This document shows, piece after piece, positions 1,378 to 60,969 of a stretch of DNA of 64,000 bases. The translations under genes and the position numbers were made by a program. The DNA is taken from assembly GCF_001485215.1 (NCBI RefSeq), contig NZ_BBWW01000001.1, forward strand, positions 248,001 to 312,000, read 5' to 3'. A model generated the notes under the pieces. The model searched no databases. It was not told the DNA's origin and was given only the letters and a program-made list of their open reading frames with translations. Source of the DNA: Leptolyngbya sp. NIES-2104. Its GTDB lineage: Bacteria; Cyanobacteriota; Cyanobacteriia; Leptolyngbyales; Leptolyngbyaceae. Positions within the stretch are counted from its first letter, which is position 1; the number at the start of each line of letters is the position of its first letter.

Positions 1378-1571
1378 GGGCGTGTTTTAGAGTCTTGTCA
1401 CTCCGTTGCTTACCCGCCCCGGAATAGAATTCGGGGCTAGTAGAACGAAGTCCACTGAAGGGAACTAAAAGCCAAATCAAGCATCTTTAGTCCTGAAAGG
1501 ACTTCGCACTGTTAGCCCCGAATTCTATTCCGGGGCGGGAGCGAACGAAGCGAGAAGCTTCAAAACGCAAC
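1378..1571. repeat. Palindromic repeat copy R1 (subfamily A)
   Basis: About 194 bp, six bases after the stop of the first HEAT-like gene. It has outer arms (GCGTGTTTT and CAAAACGC), then CCGCCCCGGAATAGAATTCG, then two small hairpins (AGTCCACTGAAGGGAACT and AGTCCTGAAAGGACT), then the mirrored AGCCCCGAATTCTATTCCGG and a GAACGAAGCGAG arm. The same layout is seen at 10602, 60769 and, in a second sequence version, at 31420 and 45351. Confidence 0.9.
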
Positions 1572-1654
1572 CTAGAACTGAGTATCATCGCGATCAGATC
1601 CGGCATATCAGTTGTTCATACGCTTGAAGCTATTGCAGTAGTGCTTTGAGCACA

Positions 1655-1879
1655 TCAGGCGTGATCGGAGTCATCACACAACCACTCAGCATTGGGGTCA
1701 TTCGTCCGAGGCAATCGATCAACCCAGGGAGCGTCAATTTCAACTCGCCACAATTCAGCGTGTAGTGTTTGATTCACCTGCTCTTGAGCCTCGTTTGGTG
1801 GAAGTTTGAGCAAGCGCTGTCGAGCCGCGATTTTTTCGGCTTCTAGAATATCGATCGACGATTGAGAAATATCGCTCAT
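1655..1879 (-). pseudogene. Short hypothetical ORF, possibly frameshifted
   Basis: A 74-codon frame starting with ATG (MSDISQSSIDILEAEKIAAR) and ending at a TGA. I do not recognise it. Its last codons run into a different frame that reads on as MTPITPDVLKALLQ and then stops, which looks more like a natural protein end; this hints at a frameshift near 1675. The upstream side is AT-rich with no clear ribosome binding site. It is on the opposite strand to the HEAT cassette and splits it. It could be a small real protein, an antitoxin remnant or chance coding. Confidence 0.35.
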
Positions 1880-1972
1880 GTAGTATAATTTTACTATTAT
1901 TTGTGAATAACACTATTTTATTCTAAACGGTTCGATTGGGCATTCTACACTCAGTTTCCACTTGAGGAATTT

Positions 1973-2881
1973 ATGTCAGAACAAGCAGATCCGAAAGCGA
2001 CTGATCTTGTAATGGGTGCAGCAATGCCTCCTCCAATTAATGCTGTGGCGTTGGGCGGAGTTGAGGGATTGCGGCAACGATTCGCGCTCGCATCTCTTGA
2101 TCAAAAGCGCGAACTCTTGCCTTTAGCTCTGAATTATCACGAAGTCGGAATTGATTTCTTGATCGACGCTGTAAGTGATGCTGAATTGATTGTGAGAGCA
2201 GAAGCGTGTGAGCTATTAGCGAAGGTAAACTCTGGGAAAGCGGAAAGCGCGATCGATAGAGGAATTCCGTTAGTGCCGGGTGATCGAGTATACGGCGTTT
2301 ATCAATCTTCAGTTTCTTATGGAGACGATTGGTACTATATCAATTGTTTGGTCGATGAAGAGGAAGAGGAAGAAGATTTATGGGATGATAAGCCCGATTT
2401 TTATCGTGTTGGTCAAACCAAGGAAGGAAAAGAGTTCGTCTATGTTTCTGATGTTCCACAATATGATCAATCAATGTCAGAATACGCTTACTATCATCCA
2501 AGTCTTATTCATTATTGTATTGAGCAAATCGCAGCAGAAGAAGCTGCACGAGCAGTCTATTGCAATCATTTCTCAAATCTTTACTGCGAGATTCATGAAA
2601 TTGGTGAGACTTGGGCTGCACCAGATATCAATTTAAGAACATGGGTGGAAACCAACAAAATCACAGTTGATGCTATCTTCTCCGAAGATCAAGGGGGTTG
2701 GGGCGATCACGAACGGCAATATCGCTGTAGTCTCCTGATGAGTTTACACAGGCAGAAACAATTTAATTTATTGCGGGAATTGTGGGATCAACTAGAGTAC
2801 AGTCCATTGGGATTTGTGCACGAATGTGTCATCGATCGACCTTGTTATCTTCGCCTTTCAAATCATCATGTTAGGACTTAG
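1973..2881 (+). CDS. HEAT-repeat-like protein, second paralogue
   Basis: A 302-residue soluble protein paralogous to the one at 482-1372 across its first 120 residues. The N-terminus again has a paired motif (TDLVMGAAMPPP then VALGGVEGLRQRF), followed by helical HEAT-like text (LIDAVSDAELIVRAEACELL). An acidic run of glutamates lies near residue 125 (DEEEEEED). The C-terminal half differs strongly from the first paralogue. Its last 14 bases overlap the ATG of the TIM-barrel gene, so the two are probably coupled. The function is unknown; a role as partner or scaffold of the neighbouring radical SAM enzyme is inference. Confidence 0.7.
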   Translation: MSEQADPKATDLVMGAAMPPPINAVALGGVEGLRQRFALASLDQKRELLPLALNYHEVGIDFLIDAVSDAELIVRAEACELLAKVNSGKAESAIDRGIPLVPGDRVYGVYQSSVSYGDDWYYINCLVDEEEEEEDLWDDKPDFYRVGQTKEGKEFVYVSDVPQYDQSMSEYAYYHPSLIHYCIEQIAAEEAARAVYCNHFSNLYCEIHEIGETWAAPDINLRTWVETNKITVDAIFSEDQGGWGDHERQYRCSLLMSLHRQKQFNLLRELWDQLEYSPLGFVHECVIDRPCYLRLSNHHVRT

Positions 2882-3560
2882 TATTACCGCGATCGGTCTT
2901 CGCCCTCTCCCCGATTGCCTCACCATTTTCGATCAACTTCGCCAACCGCTTCAGCTTGATTTTCTCGAATTAGCGATCGGTTCTCCTTGCGATACGGATG
3001 CACTCTATCCAGATGTGCCGCTAATTCTGCATGATTCCTGCCTGTATCGTGATAGCTTCCGCTGTCGTCTCGTGCTCACTCAGCCCCGAAGCTGGAAGCC
3101 TTACGCAGAGTTCGTCGAAACGCATTCTGTCGCAGCTCTATCGGTTCATGCACCGTTGCGGAAAGATATCGATCGATGTCAAATCGAAGATGCACTTGAA
3201 GCACTAGAACAAACGGTTCAAGTTCCTGTGTTTGTCGAAGTGATGCCTTCACCAGAGTATTGGTGTTCTAGTGTCGATACCTTAGTAAAGCATCCATTAT
3301 TGCTGGATGTATCTCATGTTCTGATTTGGCATCAGGGCGATCAGGTGGAAACGGAGCGAACTTGTTTAGAGATGATCGATCGAGTAAAAGCGATTCATCT
3401 TAGCCATAATAACGGTCGCGCCGATGCTCACGATCTGATTCCTTCAGAAATTTGGTTTGCGCCGTATCTGAGCGATTGGACGAAAAACTATTTTGTGACT
3501 TATGAGAGTTTGCCGGAAACACAGGCGGATTATGAACGGTTAGATAAAAGACGGCGTTAA
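2868..3560 (+). CDS. TIM-barrel protein with distant DUF692 / xylose-isomerase-like resemblance
   Basis: I place the start at the ATG at 2868 (MLGLSITAIGLRP), inside the end of the previous gene, giving 230 residues; an upstream in-frame start at 2814 adds residues that are only shadow of the HEAT gene. Visible landmarks are FLELAIGSP, ILHDSCL, LLLDVSHVLIW and IHLSHNNGRADAHDL, spaced like the strands of a TIM barrel with metal-binding His/Asp/Glu residues. The pattern recalls DUF692 enzymes (iron enzymes that modify peptides, as in MbnB) or sugar-phosphate isomerases, but the match is distant. It ends the radical SAM-HEAT cassette and is followed by a strong bidirectional terminator hairpin. 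Confidence 0.6.
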   Translation: MLGLSITAIGLRPLPDCLTIFDQLRQPLQLDFLELAIGSPCDTDALYPDVPLILHDSCLYRDSFRCRLVLTQPRSWKPYAEFVETHSVAALSVHAPLRKDIDRCQIEDALEALEQTVQVPVFVEVMPSPEYWCSSVDTLVKHPLLLDVSHVLIWHQGDQVETERTCLEMIDRVKAIHLSHNNGRADAHDLIPSEIWFAPYLSDWTKNYFVTYESLPETQADYERLDKRRR

Positions 3561-3594
3561 AAAGGTCGATCGAAGAAAACCTCGATCGACCTTT
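3561..3594. terminator. Bidirectional intrinsic terminator
   Basis: Perfect stem AAAGGTCGATCG / CGATCGACCTTT with a ten-base A-rich loop, directly after the TIM-barrel gene stop and before the end of gnd on the opposite strand. The A and T runs at the stem ends allow it to work in both directions. Confidence 0.75.
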
Positions 3595-3635
3595 GTTCAC
3601 AGACGTTCCCAAGCTAGTTGATTTAGTGTAACCGA

Positions 3636-5153
3636 CTATCGATTCGTCTGCACCTCTTTGATCTCAACATCGTCTGCACTCGGACGCGGTTGATCGGCGG
3701 TGAGCTTCTGTGGAGTCGAAAAACTCGATGAAGACTCTTGAGCCAAAGTCGTCCATTCCGTGTGGAATACGCCTTCTTTGTCAGTGCGGAGGTAGGTGTG
3801 TGCACCAAAATAATCGCGCTGCGCCTGTGTTAAGTTTTGTGGCAAACGCTCGCGGCGGTAGCTGTCGAAATAATCTAGCGACGCACTAAACGCAGGAACC
3901 GCGATCCCGTGACGAGCAGCCGCCATGATCACCTCACGCCATGCCGATTGTCGATCGAGAATCGATTGCTTGAATTCAGGAGCCAAGAGCAAGTTCGGCA
4001 GCGTCGGATTTTCGGTGAACGCATGTTGAATCTTGCCGAGGAAACCTGCACGAATAATACAGCCGCCTTTCCAAATTCGGGCACATTCTGCCAGATTCAG
4101 GTCGTATCCGTAGTTTTGCGATGCCACGTTCAGCAGTGCCATGCCTTGCGCGTACGAGCAGATTTTCGAGCAGTACAACGCATCGCGGACGGCATTGATA
4201 AACGTCTTTTTATCGCCGTCAAACGTCGGACTGGCATAGCTCAACTGTTGAGCAGCTTCAAGCCGCTCGGTCTTGTACGAGGACATAATGCGAGCGTTTA
4301 CCGCAGCAATAATCGTCGGAATTGCGACCCCTTGTTCGAGCGCATCAGTGACAGTCCAGCGTCCCGTTCCTTTCTGTCCAGCAGCATCGAGAATAAAATC
4401 AACCAGGGGCTGTTTCGTATCTGGATCGAAAACCTTGAAGATGTCTGCGGTAATTTCGATTAGATAAGAGTTCAGTTCGGGAGTCGTGTTCCATTCGGTG
4501 AACACTTCATAAAGTTCGTTGTCATCGAGTCCGCCCACGTTCTTCAGCAAATCATAGGCTTCTGCGATCAACTGCATATCGCCGTACTCGATGCCGTTGT
4601 GCACCATTTTGACGTAGTGACCTGCGCCACCCGGACCAATGTAGGTCACACAAGCGCCATCATCCACCTGAGCGGCAATCTTGGTCAAAATCGGCTCTAG
4701 ATATTCGTAAGCCGATTTCGTGCCTCCTGGCATCAAACTCGGTCCATTCAGCGCACCTTCTTCACCACCGCTCACACCCATTCCGATAAAGGTGAATTTT
4801 GCAGCTTCGAGATCACGCGCTCGACGGGCAGTATCGCTAAATAGAGAGTTACCGCCATCGATCAGGATGTCACCTTCATCGAGTAGCGGCTTTAGTTGCT
4901 CGATCATCGCGTCCACGGGTGCGCCCGCTTTCACCATAATCAAGATTTTCCGAGGGCGTTCGAGCGAAGCAACGAATTCTTCGATCGTATAGGTTGCCTT
5001 GACATTTTTGCCGCCAGCCCGATTTGCCATGAAGGTATCGGTCTTTTCGCGGCTTCGGTTAAAGACTGCGACGGGGAAGCCATTGCGCTCGACATTGAGC
5101 GCCAGGTTTTCACCCATCACAGCGAGACCAATTACACCAAAACTTTGTGCCAT
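3636..5153 (-). CDS. gnd: 6-phosphogluconate dehydrogenase, decarboxylating
   Basis: Cytosolic enzyme of the oxidative pentose phosphate pathway: it converts 6-phosphogluconate and NADP to ribulose 5-phosphate, CO2 and NADPH. The N-terminal Rossmann fold has [17 protein letters not shown], the substrate region has [12 protein letters not shown], and the signature [20 protein letters not shown] is intact. At 505 residues it is about 20-30 longer than usual because of a polar C-terminal tail after the conserved end ([11 protein letters not shown] to EVQTNR). It converges with the TIM-barrel gene and is followed upstream by recQ on the same strand, though 130 bases separate them. Confidence 0.96.
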
Positions 5154-5282
5154 AAAATTTCTCTGCTAACTCTGTAACGGCAAGGAAGCGATCGCTTCTT
5201 CAAGGTAGCTCGATCGCTTTAAGGTAGCGTGGAAGATTCCATTAAGACTCTGACTAGAGAGAGGGATTAAGCGTTTTGTATT

Positions 5283-6914
5283 TTACGCAACTTTTTGAAG
5301 CAATCCCCGTAACAATGCGGCTTCCAGGCTGATGGTCTTGTATCCAACTTCATCGAACAGAATGACGATTTTGTCGCCTTCATAACGCATTACAGTCCCT
5401 TCTCCCCAAGACTTGTGAGCGACACGGCTGTTGAGTTGATAGGGTTTTCGCCCGTCGTCTTGCTGGTTTGCAGTTCCGGAGTTGCAGTTGTCACAATATC
5501 CACACAATTCTTCACGGGGATCACCGAAATAGTTCAATAAGTATTTGCGGCGACAGTCGAGAACTTCAGCATAATTTCGCATCATCTCTAAGCGCGATCG
5601 CTCAACTTTAATTTTGCGCTCTTGTGCGTGTAGAACTTCTTCGGCAGCTTGTTCAATCTCAGGAGCGTCCGGTTTTGCGAATACTTCTCCAGTCGGCAAA
5701 GCTTCAACGACTCCTAGCAGTTCTAAGTGGCTTAATGTTGTTTTAATTTTTGTTCCAGATAAATCAGTCAGCGACTTTAAAGCTTTTGGGTGAATTGGTT
5801 CTGATTGTTGGCGAACCAGTTCAGCGAGTTCAATGACTTTTTCTTTCTCCAGTTTGCCGCTACCTGAGAAGAACTTGCGTAGGTTTAAATCATCCGGTGT
5901 GTAGAACAAAATGATGTTTGCAGGATCACCATCTCGCCCGGCTCGTCCGATTTCCTGGTAGTAACTATCGATCGAGTCACTAATGTTGTAGTGCACCACA
6001 AATCGAACATTCGACTTATCAACACCCATTCCAAACGCGGTCGTTGCTACAATCACTTCTGCTTCATCAGACATGAAAGCGTTTTGAGCTTGTTCGCGTT
6101 CTTTAGTTTTCAGTCCTGCATGATAAGCGATCGCATTAATTCCCGCTTCATTGAGTGCTTCAGCCAAAGATTCCGTTGCTTTGCGAGTGGCAACATACAC
6201 AATTCCTGGCTTAGTTAATTGCTGAATGCGTTTGATGAAAATCTCCCGCTTTTCCGCTTCATCATCGTAGTTCTCAACCGCGAGACGTAAGTTAGGACGA
6301 TCGAAGCCTCGAACAATGATTCGCGGGTTGTTCATTCCTAATCGCTGCATGATTTCTTCTCGCACAGGCGGCGATGCGGTTGCAGTCAGAGCTAGAGTTG
6401 TCGGATGTCCTAACGCTTCGATCACGGTTCCTAGTCGCAGATAGTCCGGGCGGAAACTATGACCCCATTCACTGATGCAATGTGCTTCGTCAATGACAAA
6501 CAGAGAAGGAGATGCAGCTTGTAAATGCTCGATCGTATCTGCATTGTTAAATTGTTCGGGTGCGAGGAAGAGGAATTCAATTTCACCATTACTCCAGCGA
6601 TCGAAAACCTCTGCACGATTAGAAGCAGAAATCGTTGAATTCACGACTGCCGCATGACCCACTTCGGCAACAATCGATTCTACTTGATCTTTTTGGAGTG
6701 CTAAAAGTGGAGAAACGACGATCGTTGATCCGGGAATTCTTGCGGCTGTCAGTTGATAGATTGCTGATTTGCCTGATCCGGTCGGCATCACGGCTAAAGT
6801 GTCGCGATGTTCTAGAACTGATGCGATCGCGGCTTCTTGTCCGGGCCGAAGATCATCGTAACCTAGATAATCTTGAGCAAGTTGCTGAATTGAAACTGGT
6901 TTCTTTCTTGGCAT
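5283..6914 (-). CDS. ATP-dependent DNA helicase, RecQ family
   Basis: A 3'-5' DNA helicase of 543 residues. The Walker A motif MPTGSGKSAIYQL lies at residues 43-55, the DEAH box in VIDEAHCISEWGHSFRPDYL, and motif VI in YYQEIGRAGRDGDP. The RecQ zinc region follows (CRRKYLLNYFGD to CGYCDNCNSG). Instead of the classical winged helix plus HRDC arrangement of long RecQ, it ends in a small beta-rich domain (VAHKSWGEGTVMRYEGDK to GYKTISL) similar to the C-terminal tail of some UvrD/PcrA and short RecQ proteins. This is the short type seen in many cyanobacteria. A terminator hairpin separates it from the SDR gene upstream. Confidence 0.93.
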   Translation of the reverse strand: MPRKKPVSIQQLAQDYLGYDDLRPGQEAAIASVLEHRDTLAVMPTGSGKSAIYQLTAARIPGSTIVVSPLLALQKDQVESIVAEVGHAAVVNSTISASNRAEVFDRWSNGEIEFLFLAPEQFNNADTIEHLQAASPSLFVIDEAHCISEWGHSFRPDYLRLGTVIEALGHPTTLALTATASPPVREEIMQRLGMNNPRIIVRGFDRPNLRLAVENYDDEAEKREIFIKRIQQLTKPGIVYVATRKATESLAEALNEAGINAIAYHAGLKTKEREQAQNAFMSDEAEVIVATTAFGMGVDKSNVRFVVHYNISDSIDSYYQEIGRAGRDGDPANIILFYTPDDLNLRKFFSGSGKLEKEKVIELAELVRQQSEPIHPKALKSLTDLSGTKIKTTLSHLELLGVVEALPTGEVFAKPDAPEIEQAAEEVLHAQERKIKVERSRLEMMRNYAEVLDCRRKYLLNYFGDPREELCGYCDNCNSGTANQQDDGRKPYQLNSRVAHKSWGEGTVMRYEGDKIVILFDEVGYKTISLEAALLRGLLQKVA

Positions 6915-6920
6915 ATTTTG

Positions 6921-6954
6921 AAAAAAATGCAGGGCAAGTTAGACTCGCCCTACA
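6921..6954 (-). terminator. Intrinsic terminator after the SDR gene
   Basis: On the minus strand, a stem of TGTAGGGCGAGT / ACTTGCCCTGCA with a short loop is followed directly by seven T residues. It lies between the SDR stop (6990) and the recQ start (6914), so it should end the SDR transcript. Confidence 0.75.
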
Positions 6955-6989
6955 TTAGAGAGGTTGAACAGCTTAGAAACTTTGAAAAC

Positions 6990-8006: not shown

Positions 8007-8023
8007 TGTTTTATGTAGGGAAA

Positions 8024-8527: not shown

Positions 8528-8733
8528 TGTGTTCTCCCGCTCTAAGGCATCGCACCTCTGTAAGTTAACGAATTGCAATCAAGCCAGTCTCTTCACATAG
8601 AAAGTTCCTTGATCCACCTAGAGAAAGAGATTTGCTTCTGTCATGCGAATGAGGAGAGATCGAGCTTTTCTTCTTACTGTGTAAAAAGCCTGTCAATCCG
8701 GATATCAAGTCTAGACACAAGGGAGACGCAGCA

Positions 8734-9894: not shown

Positions 9895-10602
9895 ATGGAA
9901 ACTGAATCGGACAAAACAATTAACTCTTCTGAACAGCCACCCGTCACCGATACCGAAAAATGGGCATCGATCGTCGGTGGTAGCGCAATGGTGCTATTCG
10001 GACTACAAAAACGATCGCTCAGAGGTATCCTAACCGCGATCGCAGGTGGCGGTCTTGCTTACCACGGTGCAACCGCTGATAAAAGCATCACTGATAAAGT
10101 GAGTGATGCAGTCGGACTGAACAAAGCGCTCAAAGTTGAAAAGACGGTCACGATCAATCGACCTGTAGAAGAACTCTATAACTACTGGCACGACTTCGAG
10201 AATTTACCCACTTTCATGAAGCACGTCAAATCAGTGACGGTCAGCGAAGGTGGAAAGCGATCGCATTGGGTGGCAAATGCGCCGCTCGGTCAAGAAGTCG
10301 AATGGGATGCGGAAGTGATCAAAGATGAGCCGAATCGATTGATTGCTTGGGCATCGCTCGAAGGTGCGGATGTGGATAATTCGGGATTTGTGCGATTTAC
10401 ACCAGCACCGGGCGATCGAGGAACTGAGGTGAAGGTGGTGATGGAGTACGAGATTGCAGGCGGCAGACTGACGGCAGCTTTAGCGAAATTGTTTGGGGAA
10501 GAGCCAGAACAGCAGGTGGGTGATGAACTGCGCCGATTCAAGCAATTGATGGAAGCGGGTGAGATTGCCACCACTGAAGGTCAACCTCGGTGTCACGGGT
10601 AG
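9895..10602 (+). CDS. SRPBCC family protein with N-terminal membrane region
   Basis: Residues 1-70 carry two short hydrophobic stretches (IVGGSAMVLFGLQKRS and GILTAIAGGGLAYHGATAD) like the DUF2892/YgaP membrane hairpin. Residues 75-225 are a START/SRPBCC (polyketide cyclase-like) ligand-binding domain with KTVTINRPVEELYNYWHDFE and the closing helix EEPEQQVGDELRRFKQLME. The 235-residue architecture recurs in cyanobacterial and Deinococcus stress gene groups; the ligand is unknown. The palindromic repeat R2 begins within its TAG stop codon. Confidence 0.88.
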   Translation: METESDKTINSSEQPPVTDTEKWASIVGGSAMVLFGLQKRSLRGILTAIAGGGLAYHGATADKSITDKVSDAVGLNKALKVEKTVTINRPVEELYNYWHDFENLPTFMKHVKSVTVSEGGKRSHWVANAPLGQEVEWDAEVIKDEPNRLIAWASLEGADVDNSGFVRFTPAPGDRGTEVKVVMEYEIAGGRLTAALAKLFGEEPEQQVGDELRRFKQLMEAGEIATTEGQPRCHG

Positions 10603-10799
10603 GGTGTGTTTAGGAATTTTTCGCTTCGATTCAGTCTCGCCCCGGAATGAAATTCGGAGCTAACAGAACGAAGTCCACTGAAGGGGACTAAGAACCCAAT
10701 TAATTGTCTTCAGTCCGTTAAAACGGACTTCGCACGATTAGCCCCGAATTCTATTCCGGGGCGGAAGCGAACGAAGCGACCGACTCTAAACCACGCTCC
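10602..10799. repeat. Palindromic repeat copy R2 (subfamily A)
   Basis: About 198 bp filling most of the gap between the SRPBCC and first alcohol dehydrogenase genes. It has outer arms GGGTGTGTTTA and TAAACCACGCTC, CTTCGATT / GAACGAAGCGA inner arms, the CGCCCCGGAATGAAATTCGG block and its mirror CCCCGAATTCTATTCCGGGG, plus the hairpins AGTCCACTGAAGGGGACT and AGTCCGTTAAAACGGACT. The second hairpin loop and stem differ from R1 but still pair. It starts at the last base of the upstream stop codon. Confidence 0.9.
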
Positions 10800-19843: not shown

Positions 19844-19902
19844 GTAGGGAGTGGGGAGTGGGGCGTTGTTCCCGTTTTAGCTCCCTACTCCCTACTCCCT
19901 AC
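19844..19902. repeat. STRR heptamer repeats forming a hairpin
   Basis: Left arm of tandem GGGAGTG/GGGAGTA units (GTAGGGAGTGGGGAGTGGGG) and right arm of CTCCCTACTCCCTACTCCC, with a short GTTCCCGTTTTAG loop. In RNA the mismatches are G-U wobbles, so the stem is nearly complete. Such short tandem repeats are common in filamentous cyanobacteria. It separates the secreted-protein pair from the exosortase gene and may act as a terminator or spacer. Confidence 0.75.
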
Positions 19903-24605: not shown

Positions 24606-24706
24606 AACGCCAGTTCGATGAATTTCTTCGCTCCGTTGTTCACTCGCCCCGGAATGAAATTCGGGGCGAGACAGAATCGAAGCGGAAAGACTTGTCGAAC
24701 TGGCGT
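24606..24706. repeat. Shortened palindromic repeat R3
   Basis: A 101 bp version of the repeat family with perfect 12-base outer arms (ACGCCAGTTCGA / TCGAACTGGCGT), inner arms TTCTTCGCTCCG / CGAAGCGGAAAG and one central hairpin CGCCCCGGAAT-GAA-ATTCGGGGCG. The two small middle hairpins of the long copies are missing. Located downstream of thrC. Confidence 0.85.
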
Positions 24707-31374: not shown

Positions 31375-31400
31375 GAGGTGGGGAGTAGGGAGTGGGGAGA
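31375..31400. repeat. STRR heptamer repeat, left arm
   Basis: GGGAGTAGGGAGTGGGGAGA-type tandem heptamers just after the GH13 stop. It forms an inverted pair with the CCCCACTCCC run at 31657-31680, enclosing palindromic repeat R4. Confidence 0.7.
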
Positions 31401-31419
31401 GACGGCGAACTGAATTTTA

Positions 31420-31627
31420 GAGGGTGTTTGAAAAGTATAAAAAGTCTCTTCGCTTCGATTGCCTCCCGCCCTGAAATGAATTTCGGGCTAACCGTGGAAA
31501 GTCTACTTCAGTAGACTGGGAGCTAGGTTAAAGTTCTTAGTCCATTTCAATGGACTTGCGCCGATTAGCCCGAAATTCATTTCAGGGCGGAATGTAGCGA
31601 TGAACGAACGCTTTTCAAACACCCTCT
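31420..31627. repeat. Palindromic repeat copy R4 (subfamily B)
   Basis: A 208 bp element with perfect 16-base outer arms (GAGGGTGTTTGAAAAG / CTTTTCAAACACCCTC), inner TTCGCTTCGATTG, then CCCGCCCTGAAATGAATTTC with mirrored GAAATTCATTTCAGGGCGG, and two middle hairpins AGTCTACTTCAGTAGACT and AGTCCATTTCAATGGACT. Compared with subfamily A the block and hairpin sequences are different but base pairing is preserved. Confidence 0.92.
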
Positions 31628-31656
31628 TAATCAAACGCTGACCTAACTCCTCTGCA

Positions 31657-31680
31657 CCCCACTCCCTACCCCCCACTCCT
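31657..31680. repeat. STRR heptamer repeat, right arm
   Basis: Run of CCCCACTCCCTACCCCCCAC opposite in orientation to the STRR at 31375. The two flank R4, so the region could fold as a large nested hairpin upstream of rpsO. Confidence 0.7.
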
Positions 31681-45332: not shown

Positions 45333-45350
45333 AGATCTTGCTCCGAACTA

Positions 45351-45557
45351 AGAAGATGTTTGAGAAGTGTTCGTTCATTGCTACAGCCCGCTCTGAAATG
45401 AATTTCGGGCTAATCGACGAAAGTCCATTGAAATGGACTAAGAACTTCAAACTGGCTCTGAGTCTACTTCAGTAGACTTTCCACGGTTAGCCCGAAATTC
45501 ATTTCAGGGCGAGAGACAATCGAAGCGAAGAGACTGTTTATGCTTTTCAAACACTCT
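45351..45557. repeat. Palindromic repeat copy R5 (subfamily B, inverted)
   Basis: About 207 bp with arms GATGTTTGAGAAG / CTTTTCAAACACTCTC, the AGCCCGCTCTGAAATGAA block with its mirror TTCATTTCAGGGCGAG, and hairpins AGTCCATTGAAATGGACT and AGTCTACTTCAGTAGACT. Relative to R4 the hairpin order is reversed, so R5 is inserted in the opposite orientation. It abuts the stop codon of the GT39 gene. Confidence 0.9.
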
Positions 45558-48500
45558 CTAAGGAACACCCAAATCTCGACCTTGATTTGGCACTCTGGGT
45601 AGAACACCCTCTTTGCGCTCCCATAGTCTTAACCGAGAGCCAAAAGTTTCTAGAACAGGTTCACCCAACGTCTGGAAAAACTGAATAAAGTTCGGGTCGT
45701 TGCGAAGTTCGCGTTCTTCATCAAGTTGAATCCAAATCCGATTCGTGCCTTCGAGAATGTGGCTCATTTGGTCTAAATTGCTTAATAGCTGTCCACCCCC
45801 CGCACGATCGACAACTTGACCTTCGCGCAGATACACGCTGTCAAACGGAATTGCCCAGTTTGACGGCAGCACATAATCGACCGCTCCACTAATTCCCGTT
45901 GCGACTGAAGGCGTATGAGCAATGATTAAATCTCCAGGCTGTCGGTGATCACGAATATATTCAAACGCATCGGTACTGCGTCGTGTCACCATGTCTTGAT
46001 AGCCCGCAAACACTCGATCGACTTCTAAGTTTAGAAACAACAATAAAACCACGAACCCTGTTGCGAGTTTTCTCAGCGGTAATTGTCCTCCTAACACTCG
46101 CTCATAATGCGATCCCAAGGCTTGCATTACTACGATCGCGCTATAGACCGCCAAGATGATGAAGATCGGGTAGAACGTATACACATACCGAATTGCAACC
46201 TGATAGAGCAAAAGCGTCAAGAACAATACGCTAAGAAGGACATTGCTGAACAGAAAAAACAGTTTTCCATCTCGTCGCCAGATCGTATAAACAAAGCCCA
46301 ACAAGAAAAAGAAACCATACAAGGTATACATTCGAGTCGGACCGACAAACAAACAATTCACAAATGCGGTCACTTGCCACAAATGCGGCTTGAGATAGGA
46401 ATCAGTCGTAGAAGCAAGCACCACCCAAGGAGTCAAACATTTGATAATGAAAAAGATGCCATTAAACACATAGATCCCCATCGCCATCACACTCCCGACC
46501 ACAATCCGCCAATCTTCGGATAATCGAAACGGACGGTAAAAGTACCAGAATCCCAAAAAGAAACAAGGCAGCAAAACGACCGTGACTTCTTGGCTAATCA
46601 GCATCAAGGTCAGGGCAACAAAGAAAAGATACTGATACCATCGACCCGATCGATCGATAAATCCTTTGATAAACGCTCCAAACACAATTACATCGAGTAG
46701 CTGAGTCAGTTGATAAAACCGAATGTTTCTGGAGTACCAAATTTCCATCGGATCAACTGCCAAAATCGCCACGACCACCAGCGCAATCCAAACCTTACCG
46801 GTCACTTTCCGGGCAAGTAGAAACACTGCAATCAACGTCGCTTGCCCCAAAAATACCGAGAGCAATCGAGCATTTGTTGCAGAATCCCCGAAGAGGCTCA
46901 ACCACAGCGCAACCGCGTAGTGATAGAACGGTCCTCGGCTGTACCAAATTCCAGAAGTCGCGATCGGAACACCCGTCCGCAAAATTCCCCGAATGGCATC
47001 GAGCGAAACGCCTTCATCGGTATCTAGCGCTTGAAAGTCTAGATCGTACAGTCGAAGCACAAACGCAAACCCGAAGATGAGGATAAACAAAACACTCTGC
47101 CAGACGGTAGAGCTTGCAAATTTTAGTTTGGGTCTAGACTCCCAACGCGGCAGAGTTTCAAGATTAAACCCGCCAAAATGACTGCCATACACAATCGATC
47201 GAGGTTCTTCTGGGCGACTGTTCGATCGACGATTCCAAACGAAAGTCAGCCCTACAATCCCCACAAAGCCCAGCAGAGTTAAAGGAAGGCTTTGCGGCTG
47301 AATAAAGAATAATCCCCGCTCCACTTCTGTAAACCGATGTTTGAGCAATCCAACCGTTGCTAAAAACACGGTTCCGGGTAGCAACAATCCTGCTCCCACA
47401 ATCAAATAATCCCAGTTCGATTGTTTCTGTTTCAGCCGAAATCGTCCCAGCATCCAAGCCCAGAACAGCGCAAATCCCACGCCAGCCGCCTGCAATAGAC
47501 TACGGTAGCCAAGGTAACGGGGGTAATCATATAAATCTGCATTGCCTTCATATCGTCGCTGCACTCTCGACGGATTCGGCAGTCCCACGACTCTTGCTGT
47601 GTTTCCTGCTCCTGCACCTTCAAACCAGCCTGGAATTGCTCGATCGCTCACTTGCCAATTTTCATCAGTTACGATCGGACTGACAATTCTCGGATCACGA
47701 TCTGGAGTTGGGGGGGACGCAGCCGATCGCAGCGCGAGATCCGTCCGCTGCTCATCATTTTCCGCATCTGCATCATCAGGAGTTGTCTCGATCGGGGACT
47801 CTTCTAGCTCTGTCTCCTCGTTTAAGGGCTGTGTTTCGTCTTGATCTAAAGATTGTGGAGAGTCTACTTCGAGTTCATTTTCTCCAGGGGCGGCTGTATC
47901 ACTTGCAAATGCTTCTGAAGACGATCGCAGTGGGTTCGCTTGAGACAGCGACAATCCATGAGCTTTCTCCACCCATCCATCTAGAAAAAAGCTGAGTGGA
48001 CTGGGATCAGTCGAAATCGCTTCTTGCGCGATCGGGCGCGAAGCTCGGACAGCAACAATATTTCTGCCTGGTTTGAGAAACTCAGTCACTTCATGAATGC
48101 GGACTTGATGGCTATTGACCACCCCCACCCGTCTCACCATTCGATGATTGATCATCAAACTATATCGACCATTCGCAGCAAATCGCACAAATGCCCGATG
48201 GGGCTGCTCAGAAATGTTCCATTCTCGTCTGAGCCAGAGTTCCCCGTTTTGGCTTTCTTGTCCTGTGATCCAAGCTCCACTAAGAAGGCGATCGAAGATG
48301 GTATCGGTTAATCGGCTGTAGGTTTTTTCTTGAACGGTTCCGAGAGCTTTCGCTGTTTCCCAATCCTCGTCGGGAAGTTCGGAATCATACCAAAAAATTC
48401 CCTGACGATTCTTCGGCAAAGTAGACACTAACCAAGGTGTTTCACCCGTTGTTAAATGAATTGCCGAAGAGAGCTTTCGCGAAGGATAGATGACTCCCTC

Positions 48501-49034
48501 GATCACAACACGCGGCGATCGACGAGGATTTTCAACCACGATCGCAATCACATTTTTTCCGGCTCTGAGATAGCGAGTGAGTTCTAAGTAAGCGGTTAGC
48601 TTCCAATCTGGACTCCCACCGTACCAGTAAGCAGGTCGATGGCGAAAATCATAAGAGCGACTATCACTTAAGCGCTGAAAGCGATCGCTAAGCTGTAATC
48701 CTAATCCGCGTGACTGATTCAATAAATTTGTTTCTCTTAAAACAGCTTGACCATTCACATACACAATAAAATCGCTATCCGCACTGATTTTTAACCAGGC
48801 AGCTTCTGGAGCATAGTTCAGTTTTTCAGTGCGTCGCAGATAGATTTTATAACTCGGCTGGCTGGCTGACACCCATTGTGCTTCGGGCGACCATTGGACA
48901 GATTCCAAATGCACAGGCGTATAAATGAGAGCAAAAATCGAGAGTCCCAATAACACGCCCAACGTGCTGATGATGCCGATCGATAGCCATCGGCTTAACG
49001 GCGTATTGCGCCAACTTGCTACTACTCTTTCCAT
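45558..49034 (-). CDS. Glycosyltransferase family 39-like membrane protein with jelly-roll exodomain
   Basis: A large 1158-residue protein. After one membrane segment (GIISTLGVLLGLSIFALIY) come two periplasmic beta-sandwich stretches resembling galactose-binding or rhamnosidase jelly rolls (ISADSDFIVYVNGQAV with YLRAGKNVIAIVVEN; RFAANGRYSLMINHRMV with FLKPGRNIVAVRASRP), an acidic linker (EENELEVD, DADAENDEQ), then about twelve membrane segments with the GT39/PMT acidic motif LDTDEGVSLDAIRGIL and YSRGPFYHYAVALW. GT39 enzymes transfer sugars from polyprenyl phosphate carriers. The exodomain fusion is unusual. It overlaps the TPR gene upstream by 13 bases. Confidence 0.87.
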   Translation of the reverse strand: MERVVASWRNTPLSRWLSIGIISTLGVLLGLSIFALIYTPVHLESVQWSPEAQWVSASQPSYKIYLRRTEKLNYAPEAAWLKISADSDFIVYVNGQAVLRETNLLNQSRGLGLQLSDRFQRLSDSRSYDFRHRPAYWYGGSPDWKLTAYLELTRYLRAGKNVIAIVVENPRRSPRVVIEGVIYPSRKLSSAIHLTTGETPWLVSTLPKNRQGIFWYDSELPDEDWETAKALGTVQEKTYSRLTDTIFDRLLSGAWITGQESQNGELWLRREWNISEQPHRAFVRFAANGRYSLMINHRMVRRVGVVNSHQVRIHEVTEFLKPGRNIVAVRASRPIAQEAISTDPSPLSFFLDGWVEKAHGLSLSQANPLRSSSEAFASDTAAPGENELEVDSPQSLDQDETQPLNEETELEESPIETTPDDADAENDEQRTDLALRSAASPPTPDRDPRIVSPIVTDENWQVSDRAIPGWFEGAGAGNTARVVGLPNPSRVQRRYEGNADLYDYPRYLGYRSLLQAAGVGFALFWAWMLGRFRLKQKQSNWDYLIVGAGLLLPGTVFLATVGLLKHRFTEVERGLFFIQPQSLPLTLLGFVGIVGLTFVWNRRSNSRPEEPRSIVYGSHFGGFNLETLPRWESRPKLKFASSTVWQSVLFILIFGFAFVLRLYDLDFQALDTDEGVSLDAIRGILRTGVPIATSGIWYSRGPFYHYAVALWLSLFGDSATNARLLSVFLGQATLIAVFLLARKVTGKVWIALVVVAILAVDPMEIWYSRNIRFYQLTQLLDVIVFGAFIKGFIDRSGRWYQYLFFVALTLMLISQEVTVVLLPCFFLGFWYFYRPFRLSEDWRIVVGSVMAMGIYVFNGIFFIIKCLTPWVVLASTTDSYLKPHLWQVTAFVNCLFVGPTRMYTLYGFFFLLGFVYTIWRRDGKLFFLFSNVLLSVLFLTLLLYQVAIRYVYTFYPIFIILAVYSAIVVMQALGSHYERVLGGQLPLRKLATGFVVLLLFLNLEVDRVFAGYQDMVTRRSTDAFEYIRDHRQPGDLIIAHTPSVATGISGAVDYVLPSNWAIPFDSVYLREGQVVDRAGGGQLLSNLDQMSHILEGTNRIWIQLDEERELRNDPNFIQFFQTLGEPVLETFGSRLRLWERKEGVLPRVPNQGRDLGVP

Positions 49035-56715: not shown

Positions 56716-56719
56716 GTGT

Positions 56720-57973
56720 ATGGGAAAGCGATCGCATCCGATTTCACTGCTGGAAATTTTTACAATGGCAGTGGAAGCACTCTGGAGTAATCGACTCCGC
56801 ACGAGTTTAACCATGTTAGGAGTCATCATTGGGATTGCTTCGGTGATTACAGTAACTTCAGTAGGGCAAGGAGTACAAAAAGCAACTGAACAACAGATTC
56901 AAGCATTAGGCACGAATGTCATGTTGGTGCTGTCGGGTGTTGCTCGATCGGGTGGCATTAGTCAAGGATCAGGATCAGCGAGTACGCTCACGCTCGAAGA
57001 TGCTCAAGCGGTAGGGCGACAGGTTCCGGCGGCTGAGGGAGTAACCGCATTTTTACAACGAGGTGGGCAAGTTGTTTATAACGATCAGAACACGTCTACT
57101 TCGATTTTAGGCATTGATTTGAACTATTCGGATGTGAAAGAAATCAAACCGCAAGAAGGGCGATTTTTTACTCAAGAAGAGATGCGGAATGCAGATTCGA
57201 TCGTGGTGCTGGGAAGTGCAGTACGGGATAATTTATTTTCGTCTGGAGAACCTGCGATCGGGGCAAATATTCGGATTCAAAACAATCGATATCGGGTAAC
57301 TGGAGTTGCAGAACCGAAAGGCTCAGTCGGTGGACAAGATCAAGACGATCGCGTTTACATTCCTTTGACAAATATGTCTTCGCGCATTGTGGGAAATAAT
57401 TCGCTCAATGGTCGGGCAATTAGTGGATTTTGGGTGAAAGCAAAAGATCAAATTCAGCTTGAAGCGGCACAGTTTCAAGTGACGAATCTTCTGAGAATTC
57501 GACATAACATTTATCCACCGAAGCCTGATGATTTTCGCATCAGCAATCAGGTTGATATTATCAATACCTTTAGTAGCGTGGTGGGATTGTTCACAATTCT
57601 AGTCAGCGCGATCGCTGGAATTTCTCTAATCGTAGGCGGAATTGGGATCGCAAACATTATGCTCGTTTCGGTGGTTGAACGAACTCGCGAAATCGGGATT
57701 AGAAAAGCGATCGGGGCAACTAACAGCGCGGTTCTTAGTCAATTTCTCACTGAAGCAATTCTCGTTTCGATGTTAGGAGGTGCGATCGGGGTTGCAGTTG
57801 GATTAGGGCTTGCGTTTGCTGCTTCTAGTGTTTTTAGCTTTCCGTTTATTGTTTCAGGATTTGCGATCGCATCAGGACTAACACTCGCTCTAGTGGTTGG
57901 CTTGATTGCGGGTGTAATTCCGGCTCGAAATGCCGCCCGACTTGATCCGATTGCAGCACTCCGGAGCGATTGA
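56720..57973 (+). CDS. MacB/FtsX-type ABC transporter permease
   Basis: 417 residues from the ATG at 56720 (MGKRSHPISLLEIFTMAVEA), with a GGAGGAGG ribosome site inside the previous gene's end. The MacB layout is visible: N-terminal membrane segment with TSLTMLGVIIGIASVITVTS, a large periplasmic domain (about residues 50-270), and three C-terminal segments with SLIVGGIGIANIMLVSVVER, TREIGIRKAIGA and RLDPIAALRSD. In this type of exporter, the ATPase works by long-range motion rather than moving cargo through the membrane. The ATPase starts four bases later. Confidence 0.93.
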   Translation: MGKRSHPISLLEIFTMAVEALWSNRLRTSLTMLGVIIGIASVITVTSVGQGVQKATEQQIQALGTNVMLVLSGVARSGGISQGSGSASTLTLEDAQAVGRQVPAAEGVTAFLQRGGQVVYNDQNTSTSILGIDLNYSDVKEIKPQEGRFFTQEEMRNADSIVVLGSAVRDNLFSSGEPAIGANIRIQNNRYRVTGVAEPKGSVGGQDQDDRVYIPLTNMSSRIVGNNSLNGRAISGFWVKAKDQIQLEAAQFQVTNLLRIRHNIYPPKPDDFRISNQVDIINTFSSVVGLFTILVSAIAGISLIVGGIGIANIMLVSVVERTREIGIRKAIGATNSAVLSQFLTEAILVSMLGGAIGVAVGLGLAFAASSVFSFPFIVSGFAIASGLTLALVVGLIAGVIPARNAARLDPIAALRSD

Positions 57974-57976
57974 ACA

Positions 57977-58651
57977 ATGGCAACCATGATTTGGATGGAA
58001 AATGTTATCAAGACCTATCGATTAGGTGACATTGATGTTCCAGTACTCAAAGGCATTGATCTGACGATCGAGGAAGGTGAATATGTGGCGATTATGGGTA
58101 TGTCTGGGTCAGGTAAATCAACTTTGATGAACATTATCGGTTGCCTCGATCGACCTTCTGACGGTCACTATGTTTTAGAAGGTCAAAATCTAACAACCTT
58201 AAATGATGATGAACTTGCTTTTATTCGCAATCAGCGAATTGGCTTTGTGTTTCAGCAGTTTAATTTACTCAATCGATCGACTGCACTTGAAAATGTAATG
58301 TTGCCGATGGTGTATGCCGGAATTCCGCGATCGCAAAGACAACATCGAGCCGCAGAAGCTCTGACTCGTGTGGGACTTGCAGAACGGTTATCAAATCGCC
58401 CGAATCAGCTCTCAGGAGGACAACAGCAGCGAGTCGCGATCGCTCGTGCATTAGTGAATCGTCCGGCACTCGTTCTAGCCGATGAACCAACCGGAGCATT
58501 GGATACTCAGACTTCACTAGAAGTGATGAGTTTGTTAACCGAGTTGAATCAGCAGGGAATTACGATCGTGATTGTGACACACGAACCGGATGTCGCGGCT
58601 CAGACTCAGCGGGTGATTCATGTCAAAGATGGGTTAGTGGTCGATCGTTAA
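57977..58651 (+). CDS. ABC transporter ATP-binding protein (MacB-type ATPase)
   Basis: 224 residues. Walker A is [20 protein letters not shown], the signature is [20 protein letters not shown], and Walker B is [20 protein letters not shown]. It powers the permease encoded just upstream, giving an adaptor-permease-ATPase order like macA-macB split or devBCA. The MacB-type permease makes a MacAB/LolCDE-like role more likely than DevBCA glycolipid export, but the substrate is unknown. Confidence 0.94.
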
Positions 58652-58699
58652 GCGATCGGTTGTTGCTCAGCTAAAATACAGGTAATGGAGGGAAAAGTG

Positions 58700-58933
58700 A
58701 TGATTTCAACCGAATTGATTCTAGAAGAATCGCAGCTTGAGTTTCTGAACCAGTTTCAGCAATACGGCTTCAAAGACCAACATGAGGTTGTTCGGACTGC
58801 ACTGGCTCGACTGAAACAAGCATTGCAGCAAGAACGATTAATCGAGTCTGCACATTTGTATGCTGAGCTTTACGAGGAAGATTTGGAGGTGCAAGCGTTG
58901 ACGGAGGCGGCATTGTCGGACTGGACAGAATGA
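58700..58933 (+). CDS. Ribbon-helix-helix-type antitoxin
   Basis: 77 residues from the ATG at 58700, which has the GGAGGG ribosome site at an eight-base distance; an in-frame ATG at 58685 is too close to it. The text ISTELILEESQLEFLNQFQQ with GFKDQHEVVRTALARLKQ fits the RHH/ParD-like DNA-binding fold, and the acidic C-terminal part should wrap the toxin. It overlaps the toxin start (ATGA), the usual antitoxin-first arrangement. Confidence 0.8.
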   Translation: MISTELILEESQLEFLNQFQQYGFKDQHEVVRTALARLKQALQQERLIESAHLYAELYEEDLEVQALTEAALSDWTE

Positions 58934-59283
58934 CAGTATTGCAACGCGGCATGATTGTGAATGTCAATCTAAATCCTACTAAGGGTTCTGAGACGGGGAA
59001 AACTCGCCCTTGTATTGTTGTGACGAATAACATCTATAACGCTAGAGTTCCAGTGATTCAAGTTGTTCCGATTACAGAATGGAGCGAGAAAAAAGCAAGA
59101 ATTGCAACGAACGTCGAAATCGAGCCTTCAGACACAAATGGATTATCGAAAAAATCGATCGCAGATTGTTTGCAGACTCGACCGATTGATCATCGCTTCA
59201 GATTAATCAATGTTCGGGGCAATTTGGAGCCAAAACTTTTAAGTGCGATCGACGACGCTTTGAGAACGGTTTTTGCGCTGTAA
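58930..59283 (+). CDS. MazF/PemK-type toxin (mRNA interferase)
   Basis: 117 residues with the family start RGMIVNVNLNPTKGSETGKT, then RPCIVVTNNIYN, VIQVVPITEW and SIADCLQTRPID. These sequence-specific ribonucleases are held inactive by the antitoxin encoded with them. Here the partner at 58700 looks like an RHH protein, not the AbrB-fold MazE, which is a known mix-and-match arrangement. Conserved Arg and Thr residues are present, so the toxin is probably intact. Confidence 0.88.
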   Translation: MTVLQRGMIVNVNLNPTKGSETGKTRPCIVVTNNIYNARVPVIQVVPITEWSEKKARIATNVEIEPSDTNGLSKKSIADCLQTRPIDHRFRLINVRGNLEPKLLSAIDDALRTVFAL

Positions 59284-59336
59284 TGTGCGAAATCCCGTAG
59301 TCTAGAAATTGCTCGATCGCACAAGGAATTTTTCAA

Positions 59337-60725
59337 ATGACAACGAGAACTGAAACCGATAGCATGGGCGCGATCGCGGTGGAGAGCGATCGATATTGGG
59401 GCGCTCAAACCCAGCGGTCTTTGATGTATTTCGCGATCGGACAAGATCAGATGCCGACCGAGTTGATTCGAGCCTTTGGCATTTTGAAAAAAGCAGCCGC
59501 GATCGTCAATCAACAGTTAGGAAAGTTACCACCTGAGAAAGCCACTTTGATTATTCAAGCCGCAGATGAGGTGATCGAAGGCAAGCTCAATGATCATTTT
59601 CCATTGTCTGTCTGGCAGACTGGTAGCGGCACACAGACGAATATGAATGCAAATGAAGTGATCTCAAATCGTGCGATCGAGATTGCAGGTGGCGTTTTAG
59701 GCAGCAAAGAGCCGATTCATCCGAATGATCATGTTAATCTGTCGCAGTCCTCGAATGATACTTTTCCGACTGCGATGCACATTGCAGCAGCAGAATCAAT
59801 TCATCAGCGATTGTTACCGATGGTGAGAAAGCTTCGGAATGCGTTGCAGGAGAAGTCGAACGAGTTTGAAGCAATCATCAAAATCGGGCGAACTCATTTG
59901 ATGGATGCTGTGCCGTTAACATTAGGGCAGGAATTTTCGGGCTATGTTGCACAGTTAGATCAAGCAATTGTTCGCATCGAAGCCACGTTACCCGGATTGT
60001 ATGAGTTAGCGATCGGAGGAACGGCGGTTGGAACTGGAATTAACACACATCCAGAGTTTGCAGAGCGATCGGCAACTGAGATTTCTAGGCTCACTGAGTT
60101 GCCGTTTGTGAGTGCGCCAAATAAGTTTGCAGCACTAGCCGCGCATGATGCGATCGTGTTTACCAGTGGAGCGATTAAAACGCTGGCTTGTGCATTGATG
60201 AAGATTGCGAATGACTTACGTTGGATGGGGTCAGGACCGCGCTGTGGATTAGGTGAGTTAGTGTTACCTGCAAACGAACCTGGATCATCCATCATGCCGG
60301 GAAAAGTCAATCCAACACAGTGTGAAGCGATGACAATGGTGTGTGTGCAAGTGATGGGAAATGATAGCGCGATCGCAATTGCTGCAAGTCAGGGGAACTT
60401 TGAACTGAATGTGTTTAAGCCTGTGTTAATTCACAATTTGATTCATTCGATTCGTATTCTTTCCGATGCCTGCTCTTCGTTTACTGATCACATGGTGGTG
60501 GGCATTGCGCCGAATCGCGATCGTATCAATCAGTTTCTCGAAAATTCGTTGATGCTAGTAACAGCGCTGAATCCAAAGATTGGATACGATCGAGCTGCAA
60601 AAGTTGCTTACAAGGCGTATCAGGAGAATTCAACATTGCGACAGGCTTGTATTGAAATGGGATTTTTAACAGGTGAAGAATTCGATCAAATCGTGCGACC
60701 GGAACAGATGATTTATCCAACGTGA
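59337..60725 (+). CDS. fumC: Fumarate hydratase class II
   Basis: Reversibly hydrates fumarate to malate; an oxygen-stable, iron-free enzyme of 462 residues. Landmarks are [57 protein letters not shown] and the signature [19 protein letters not shown]. The start is the ATG at 59337, 53 bases after the toxin stop. Repeat R6 lies between its end and the end of the DUF790 gene. Confidence 0.96.
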
Positions 60726-60768
60726 GATTTAATCGATCGTCGATCGTTCTAGAAATGAGGGGTTTGCA

Positions 60769-60969
60769 CTAGGACGCGCTTTAAAGCCTTTTCTCTGCGT
60801 TGTTCACCCGCCCCGAATTCCATTTCGGGGCTAGTTGAACGAAGTCCACTGAAGGGGACTAAAAGCCAAATTCAGCATCTTCAGTCCTGAAAGGACTTCG
60901 CACTGTTAGCCCCGAATTCTATTCCGGGGCGGGCGCGAACGAAGCGAGAAGTTTTAAAGCACGCACTAG
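60769..60969. repeat. Palindromic repeat copy R6 (subfamily A)
   Basis: About 201 bp between the convergent fumC and DUF790 ends. Outer arms CTAGGACGCGCTTTAAAG and TTTAAAGCACGCACTAG, blocks CGCCCCGAATTCCATTTCGG and CCCCGAATTCTATTCCGGGG, hairpins AGTCCACTGAAGGGGACT and AGTCCTGAAAGGACT, inner arm GAACGAAGCGAGAAG. The middle is nearly identical to R1. Confidence 0.92.

What the first reader, a model, noticed from the sequence alone, without database searches (positions are those of the whole stretch)
1378..60969. A family of ~200 bp nested palindromic repeats with two internal hairpins
R1 (1378-1571), R2 (10602-10799), R4 (31420-31627), R5 (45351-45557) and R6 (60769-60969) share one plan: outer terminal arms, a CTTCG/CGAAG arm, a 15-20 bp inverted block, and two small hairpins in the middle, around an asymmetric linker that gives the element direction. 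No ORF is inside, so they are non-coding. They could be foldback MITEs, a REP-like family mobilised in trans, or a repeated structured RNA. I know no named family with this layout.
Basis: seen in the sequence. Interest (0 to 1): 0.72.

Follow-up and report, generated by a model that had tools for sequence, protein, structure and literature searches.

The report
Palindromic mobile elements with switched drivers
The repeats are small, gene-less DNA elements that appear to jump: their outer ends look like those of one class of cut-and-paste mobile DNA, while their hairpin core matches the flanks of a different, single-strand type of mobile gene that was described as lacking such partner sequences.

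Summary
R1, R2, R4, R5 and R6 belong to a dispersed family in a Leptolyngbya-like cyanobacterium: 63 loci, fragments included, in the 1.24 Mb read, and 213 core-type hairpins genome-wide against 0 for the reversed pattern.

Copies have two layers. The outer layer is a MITE. R4 carries exactly, and R5 with 1 and 3 mismatches, the 16-bp end of a 915-bp IS5-family insertion sequence present in 7 identical copies in this genome; both make 3-bp TNA duplications. R1/R2/R6 carry a related end beside TA. R2 and R6 are absent from the same loci in relative G004.

The core (block, hairpin, linker, hairpin, block) matches the flanks of a Y1/HUH transposase gene of TnpA "subclass 1.2". The host keeps one broken copy; two relatives keep intact ones inside the core. 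Of 30 such genes fetched from the class, 20 have long flanking inverted repeats, against 0 of 28 other Y1 genes. Quentin et al. 2018 list no REPs for this subclass.

Of 39 copies with resolved ends, 16 sit on a stop codon. Transposition by either enzyme is inferred, not shown.

The parts
1378..1572 (+). R1, type A two-layer element (TA flanks at 1376-1377 and 1573-1574)
1449..1466 (+). R1 hairpin 1 (AGTCC...)
   Evidence: consensus fold
1489..1503 (+). R1 hairpin 2 (AGTCCTGAAAGGACT)
   Evidence: consensus fold
10602..10798 (+). R2, type A; inserted in the TA of the TAG stop codon of ORF 9895-10602; flanks TA (left) and CA (right)
   Evidence: a relative (L207) has the same stop codon and no element
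24607..24706 (.). R3, type C ends, single-block (core-less) relative
31420..31626 (-). R4, type B; TTA duplications at 31417-31419 and 31627-31629
   Evidence: both ends identical over 16 bp to the right end of the resident IS5-family IS
45352..45558 (+). R5, type B (ends with 3 and 1 mismatches); TAA duplications at 45349-45351 and 45559-45561; the stop codon of the minus-strand ORF 45558-49034 lies on the right junction
60772..60966 (+). R6, type A; TA flanks at 60770-60771 and 60967-60968; absent between the same two converging genes in relative G004

Best explanation
These are two-layer non-autonomous elements. Shown: (i) an outer pair of inverted ends with short target duplications, type B ends being those of a resident IS5-family (IS5_3) insertion sequence; (ii) a core (palindromic block, CTAAYAG, hairpin 1, about 22-nt linker, hairpin 2, CTRTTAG, block') that is the same unit as the flanks of TnpA subclass 1.2 genes, with tnpA sitting where the linker is. 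Inferred: the core descends from a Y1/HUH element that lost its gene and at first relied on TnpA 1.2 in trans. It then became enclosed by DDE-type ends and is now copied by IS5-family transposase acting on those ends, while the TnpA lineage decays (one broken copy is left in this genome). Copies survive best at native stop codons, because the TA/TNA duplication, with or without the first G of the end, re-creates the stop and the gene product is unchanged.
For: Outer layer: 27 of 43 copies of 160 bp or more have the same end type on both sides (15 B/B, 10 A/A, 2 C/C), against 60 of 2000 random 55-bp windows matching any type. B flanks are identical 3-mers in 12 of 22, shuffle mean 5.7, P 3.5e-4. 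The seven IS copies are one 915-bp sequence with identical TNA duplications in 7 of 7; the transposase scores 209.7 bits on NF033580, cut-off 110. Loci without the element. Core: own tnpA relic followed directly by hairpin 2 and block'; intact tnpA between the two halves in G002 and G011, the tnpA stop TAG being the first bases of the hairpin in those two and in the own relic. Long inverted repeats (score 15 or more) flank 20 of 30 subclass-1.2-like genes, from 11 family codes, against 0 of 28 others, P 1.8e-8; AGTC..GACT hairpins lie near 20 of 31 against 2 of 43. The 27 unbroken ones form one clade, support 1.0, against 9 others. Hairpin type follows the host: the GG type occurs 3 to 81 times in 7 of 20 genomes searched, in 5 of which the fetched tnpA locus itself carries it and in 2 (G150, G287) an imperfect form, and 0 times in the other 13, own genus included. 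Wrapping recurs in G287, a distant family: 10 of 12 fetched copies are 165 bp with other DDE-like ends (GACYTCTTGCAAAA) and TA on both sides in 9 of those 10. Stop codons: 16 of 39 (5 of 17 A, 11 of 22 B) against 7.8% of non-coding TA sites, P 1.2e-8.
Against: No transposition was observed. No autonomous IS with type A ends was found: 30 matches to the end with up to 1 mismatch, and no transposase recognised by eye between ends in the 9 own-genome regions read for this; L118 shares only TAGGGCGT. 10 of 22 B copies and 8 of 17 A copies lack identical flanks, so many are old or the junction is misread. The pattern that placed the junctions contains TA or TNA itself, so the TA beside type A ends is not independent evidence, and one of its 9 identical pairs is CA/CA. 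None of the four tnpA loci of this lineage shows A, B or C ends outside the halves (read by eye), so capture by DDE ends is inferred from its products. 10 of 30 subclass-1.2-like loci score under 15; that threshold was set after seeing both groups (control maximum 13.5), and the control genes come from another sample of genomes. Of 26 gene ends running into a copy, 6 become longer in the joined empty site. Type C has no known helper and its duplication was not worked out.
Confidence: 0.72

Rival explanations
1. Ordinary IS5-type MITE: the inside is just foldback sequence, and the likeness to TnpA flanks arises because tnpA genes inserted into such palindromes.
For: Ends, duplications and loci lacking the element are all as in a DDE MITE. 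MITEs often carry internal palindromes (recalled).
Against: tnpA lies between the two hairpins in G002 and G011 and beside one in G004 and the own relic, with its stop codon fused to the hairpin in three of four. The association is seen in 11 cyanobacterial family codes and not for the other Y1 genes scored. Hairpin type is specific to the host.
Confidence: 0.15
2. Still-active HUH satellite (REPIN/PATE-like): TnpA 1.2 moves the core today and the outer ends are a relic of one old insertion.
For: The block-hairpin pair resembles REP doublets, and in G282 complete two-hairpin elements flank tnpA on both sides (L226).
Against: The only Y1 gene found in this genome is broken. 40 of 43 long copies carry at least one outer end, and flanks are duplicated in 12 of 22 B copies, which single-strand HUH transposition does not do (stated for IS605-type elements and PATEs in PMC3119063, passages read).
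Confidence: 0.08
3. Structured non-coding RNA or 3'-UTR regulator (terminator or stabiliser) spread by selection; mobility is secondary.
For: Strong folds with two-sided changes. Copies favour gene 3' ends: nearest gene end is a 3' end for 52 of 63; convergent gaps 23 against 10.9 expected, divergent 4 against 19.6.
Against: R2 and R6 are missing at the same locus in related species; no Rfam match; palindrome maintenance in DNA gives the same pair changes; loss of harmful insertions alone can explain the 3' bias.
Confidence: 0.05

Closest known systems
IS5-family MITEs; Nezha as the named cyanobacterial MITE (named in passages seen of PMC10969869 and PMC3733652; its own paper not seen)
   Same: Short, no gene, ends shared with a resident IS, TNA duplication, intergenic.
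   Different: The core is not IS5-derived but matches the flanks of a HUH transposase.
REPINs/RAYTs and TIRtrons/TIRYTs (PMC3733652: passages and section 16 read; PMC3116915: listing and start of abstract only)
   Same: Inverted palindromic units, single or paired, dispersed in many copies, and flanking a Y1 transposase gene.
   Different: The gene is IS200-like subclass 1.2 (Y---Q--HH), not TnpA-REP; units are two-hairpin and about 150 bp; no GTAG/CGTC tag was established; copies here carry DDE ends and target duplications.
TnpA subclass 1.2 (Quentin et al. 2018, PMC6006769: sections 17 and 18 and passages read)
   Same: DH[IVL]H, WQ, Y---Q--HH, about 140 aa, Cyanobacteria, few copies per genome.
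   Different: They list no REPs and generally no typical terminal IS200 structures; here 20 of 30 such loci have long flanking inverted repeats.
PATEs of Haloquadratum (PMC3119063, passages read)
   Same: Transposase-free palindromic elements whose palindromes match those of IS605-type elements; core-deleted short forms occur.
   Different: PATEs have no terminal inverted repeats and no target duplications; these have both.

Membership tests
MITE of an IS5-family IS (type B: R4, R5) | Terminal inverted repeats shared with an autonomous IS in the genome | tested here: met
   16 of 16 bp with the right end of L111-L117 at both ends of R4; 13 and 15 of 16 for R5
MITE of an IS5-family IS (type B: R4, R5) | Same target duplication as the IS (TNA) | tested here: met
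   12 of 22 copies identical, R4 and R5 among them; IS 7 of 7
MITE of an IS5-family IS (type B: R4, R5) | Mobilised by that transposase | not testable with these tools
   needs a transposition assay
MITE with type A ends (R1, R2, R6) | Autonomous IS with the same ends in the genome | tested here: not met
   not found with up to 1 mismatch and nine regions read; L118 shares only TAGGGCGT
MITE with type A ends (R1, R2, R6) | Target duplication | tested here: inconclusive
   TA/TA in 8 of 17, but the search pattern contains TA
MITE with type A ends (R1, R2, R6) | Site without the element in a relative | tested here: met
   R2 site in L207 has the same stop codon and no element; R6 absent between the same genes in L199
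REPIN/RAYT | Partner gene is a TnpA-REP (RAYT) transposase | tested here: not met
   NF047646 28.0 and 22.3 bits, cut-off 80; NF033573 (IS200/IS605) 71.8 and 74.2, cut-off 55
REPIN/RAYT | GTAG or CGTC tag next to the palindrome | tested here: inconclusive
   mostly TTAG stands beside the block; cleavage site unknown
IS200/IS605 element ends | Small hairpins flank tnpA | tested here: met
   both sides in G002 and G011; 20 of 31 loci have at least one AGTC..GACT hairpin
IS200/IS605 element ends | No inverted repeats and no target duplication | tested here: not met
   inverted repeats around tnpA in 20 of 30 loci; duplications around non-autonomous copies
Known Rfam RNA | Match at the gathering score | tested here: not met
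   only a tRNA in the window

The most novel reading that the evidence does not exclude
TnpA subclass 1.2, described as lacking IS properties, is the founder of a satellite system found in many cyanobacterial families. Its two-hairpin satellites have repeatedly changed driver, escaping a dying single-strand (HUH) transposase by acquiring ends recognised by unrelated DDE transposases (IS5-type TNA ends here, TA-flanked ends in a distant family), and they use stop codons as harmless landing sites.
Probability: 0.45. Interest if true: 0.8.

Novelty: new variant of a known kind. Interest (0 to 1): 0.62.

Why it matters
It gives TnpA subclass 1.2 a candidate DNA substrate, which makes its function directly testable. 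It suggests that non-autonomous elements can pass between mechanistically unrelated transposases (HUH and DDE), a route of survival that joins two fields, MITEs and REPINs. It also offers an origin for a class of intergenic palindromes in cyanobacteria and a simple reason why they sit at gene ends.

Tried and rejected
Rfam at gathering scores: no family. One exact 26-base pattern in viral contigs: no match; R6 and one G287 copy in plasmid records: no match. Helper IS for type A: pattern search and nine own-genome regions read: none found. DNA search for the ORF beside R5 in seven relatives gave nothing and is uninformative. The YTAR calculation is unusable, because the mask excludes the base before the stop codon; the all-TA figure (7.8%) is used for type A instead. 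One search used stop-codon counts of 6 and 12 read by eye; a scripted recount that admits only TAA/TAG stops gave 5 and 11, which the report uses. Literature: ten searches. None of the listings or passages seen described these repeats or repeats of subclass 1.2, but the library lacks most subscription papers, and the paper on very small mobile repeats of cyanobacteria cited in PMC3733652 was not held. Structured RNA as the main explanation was set aside: no support beyond folding.

Rows dropped or uninformative: 7 of 49 loci were left out beforehand and 14 of the other 42 gave no usable ORF (28 scored). One search also scored L166, L167 and L189 (14, 7 and 7), which are not in the 30. In one search the control window was 1,040 bp around the gene, larger than the 600 bp of flanks tested. 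In one search three broken genes (L217, L225, L227) were left out, and only 9 other Y1 proteins passed the filter. In one search, 24 of 63 loci had no resolvable pair of ends. At the R2 locus, of 8 relatives 4 lack any element, 3 hold a different one and 1 (L208) is cut off by the contig end; at the R6 locus only 1 of 8 (G004) keeps both neighbours.
Full report
WHAT WAS CHECKED. R1 and R5 fold with z-scores of -10.0 and -8.4 as single-stranded DNA, 0 of 200 shuffles doing as well. The window is part of a 5.7-Mb contig of a 6.39-Mb genome. The 15 public stretches that hold an exact 26-base piece of the core come from Phormidium tanganyikae FI6-MK23, Pseudanabaenaceae cyanobacterium LEGE 13415 and Cyanobacteria bacterium FACHB-63, so the host is a Leptolyngbya-like cyanobacterium (inference). 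The genome holds 213 hairpins of the type AGTCCNNTNNANNGGACT against 0 for the reversed control; not all belong to full copies. A profile found 63 loci, fragments included, in the 1.24 Mb read. R6 has matches at E <= 1e-5 in 12 of 39 genomes searched: own, the seven others of the genus, and four further members of the family, some of them with one weak match only.

TWO LAYERS. Copies fall into end types. Type B (R4, R5) starts GAGGGTGTTTGAAAAG, exactly so at both ends of R4 and with 3 and 1 mismatches in R5. Type A (R1, R2, R6) starts GGGCGTGTTTTAAA after TA. A rarer type C starts near CAGTTCGATGAATTC (R3, which lacks the two-hairpin core). Of 43 copies of 160 bp or more, 27 have the same type on both sides, 1 is mixed, 12 are recognised on one side and 3 on neither; any of the three types turns up in 60 of 2000 random windows. 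Short forms exist: a 100-bp type A copy with one block (L248) and a 55-bp type B copy with no core.

THE OUTER LAYER IS A MITE. A search for the DDE_Tnp_1_2 family gave 14 places in the genome. Seven are one identical 915-bp IS whose right end is GAGGGTGTTTGAAAAG and whose left end differs at one base; all seven have TTA, TAA or TCA repeated on both sides. Its transposase is IS5 family, NF033580, 209.7 bits against a cut-off of 110. Type B copies show identical 3-mers in 12 of 22 cases, mostly TAA or TTA; shuffling the right-hand 3-mers gives 5.7 on average, P 3.5e-4. Type A copies show TA on both sides in 8 of 17, but the pattern that placed the junctions contains the TA, so this is weak. At the R2 locus relative G004 (L207) has the same coding end and stop codon and goes straight to the next gene; L212, L213 and L214 also lack the element, three relatives hold a different one, and L208 is cut off. 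At the R6 locus G004 (L199) has the same two converging coding ends without the element; the other seven relatives do not keep both neighbours in the stretch read. No autonomous IS with type A ends was found.

THE CORE BELONGS TO ANOTHER KIND OF ELEMENT. In G011 a copy carries a 142-aa gene between hairpin 1 and hairpin 2. It matches Y1_Tnp (81 bits) and the IS200/IS605 model (71.8 bits, cut-off 55), not the REP-associated one (28 bits, cut-off 80), and solved transposases, among them ISHp608's, at E = 3e-9 or weaker. In G002 an intact gene is flanked by a 29-bp perfect inverted repeat that includes the hairpins. G004 and the own genome keep broken genes with one half still attached; the own copy is the only Y1 gene found there. 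The proteins show DH[IVL]H, WQ and Y---Q--HH, the signature of TnpA subclass 1.2 in Quentin et al. 2018 (PMC6006769, sections 17-18), which that paper calls generally without typical terminal IS200 structures and lists with no REP.

GENERALITY. The G002 protein has matches at E <= 1e-12 in 41 of 291 genomes of the class. Of the 30 loci fetched, the best matches, 29 carry Y---Q--HH and 20 have a flanking inverted repeat scoring 15 or more, in 11 family codes. Of 28 other Y1 genes scored with the same function none does, the maximum being 13.5 (Fisher P 1.8e-8). The threshold was set after seeing both groups, and the controls come from other genomes. Hairpins AGTC..GACT lie within 300 bp of 20 of 31 such genes, against 2 of 43 other Y1 loci in a larger window. 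The flanks often share block, CTAATAG, AAGTC hairpin even where stem letters differ. A tree of 27 unbroken subclass-1.2 proteins and 9 others separates them with support 1.0. A hairpin type seen beside tnpA in distant hosts (AGTCGGYTNNARCCGACT) occurs 3 to 81 times in 7 of 20 genomes searched and 0 times in 13, including own, G002, G004, G011 and six family members without a match to the gene. In 5 of the 7 the fetched tnpA locus carries it; in G150 and G287 an imperfect form. In G072 all three lie within 4 kb of the gene. In G287, a distant family, the two-hairpin element is again enclosed, by ends GACYTCTTGCAAAA: 10 of 12 fetched copies are 165 bp, mean identity of the 12 is 97% (lowest 83%), and TA stands on both sides in 9 of those 10. 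The six G282 copies fetched show no such ends by eye. Wrapping by DDE-like ends has therefore probably happened more than once but not everywhere (inference; the G287 transposase was not sought, and the TA there could belong to the repeat).

WHERE COPIES SIT. With crude gene models (998 ORFs), the nearest gene end is a 3' end for 52 of 63 loci; convergent gaps hold 23 against 10.9 expected by length, divergent gaps 4 against 19.6 (chi-square P 8e-6). Of 39 copies with resolved ends, 16 (5 of 17 A, 11 of 22 B) lie on a TAA or TAG stop codon that is also the stop in the joined empty site, against 7.8% of non-coding TA sites (P 1.2e-8). Of 26 gene ends running into a copy, 20 keep their length in the joined site and 6 become longer, so some insertions did cut an ORF or were misread. 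For R2 the native stop is confirmed in a relative. Where the stop codon is the duplication itself, the joined site keeps it by construction, so those cases rest on the enrichment alone.

MECHANISM. Most likely, a HUH element with block-hairpin ends lost its gene, the satellite became enclosed by DDE ends, and IS5-family transposase now moves it; insertion into a stop codon is tolerated because the duplication, with or without the first G of the end, rebuilds it. Shown: layers, duplications of type B, loci lacking the element in a relative, association with tnpA. Inferred: order of events, present driver, reason for the stop-codon bias. Not shown: transposition, cleavage, transcription. Two-sided pair changes (11 of 34 pairs) do not separate RNA function from DNA palindromes.

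NOVELTY. Each layer alone is of a known kind (IS5 MITE; Y1-associated palindromes such as REPINs, TIRtrons and PATEs). New, as far as the ten searches made here can tell, are a repeat family for TnpA subclass 1.2 and its enclosure by DDE ends. The library lacks most subscription papers, so this is a limited claim.

Noticed in passing
L209, L210, L211 (orthologous place of R2 in G001, G006, G007): The same intergenic spot holds other palindromic elements there; L209 and L210 have the block-hairpin-linker-hairpin-block plan with quite different stems (GCCCCCTAAATCCCCC type). Either a hot spot or old elements whose stems were rewritten. None of the three genomes had a TnpA 1.2 match.
   Followed up: partly
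window 31378-31397 and 31657-31676; also 19844-19902: R4 is bracketed by inverted runs of GGGAGTGGGGAGT-like heptamer repeats, which also form a hairpin at 19844-19902.
   Followed up: no
G000:C1:497804-498046: A core copy whose two hairpins have different but self-complementary letters (AGTCCGCGAAGGCGGACT and AGTGTGCGAAGGCACACT).
   Followed up: no
L226 (G282) and its neighbourhood, G282:C1:6214714-6216111: Complete two-hairpin elements on both sides of a subclass 1.2 gene, and three hairpins 107 bp apart further out on its upstream side, like a REPtron.
   Followed up: no
L149 (own genome, C1 about 1,776,000): The own tnpA relic directly follows a gene that looks like a PIN-domain nuclease, and small toxin-antitoxin-like genes with repeated segments lie around it (function by eye).
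   Followed up: no
L111 and L113: Two of the seven identical IS5-family copies also have a neighbouring open frame ending exactly at the insertion junction.
   Followed up: partly
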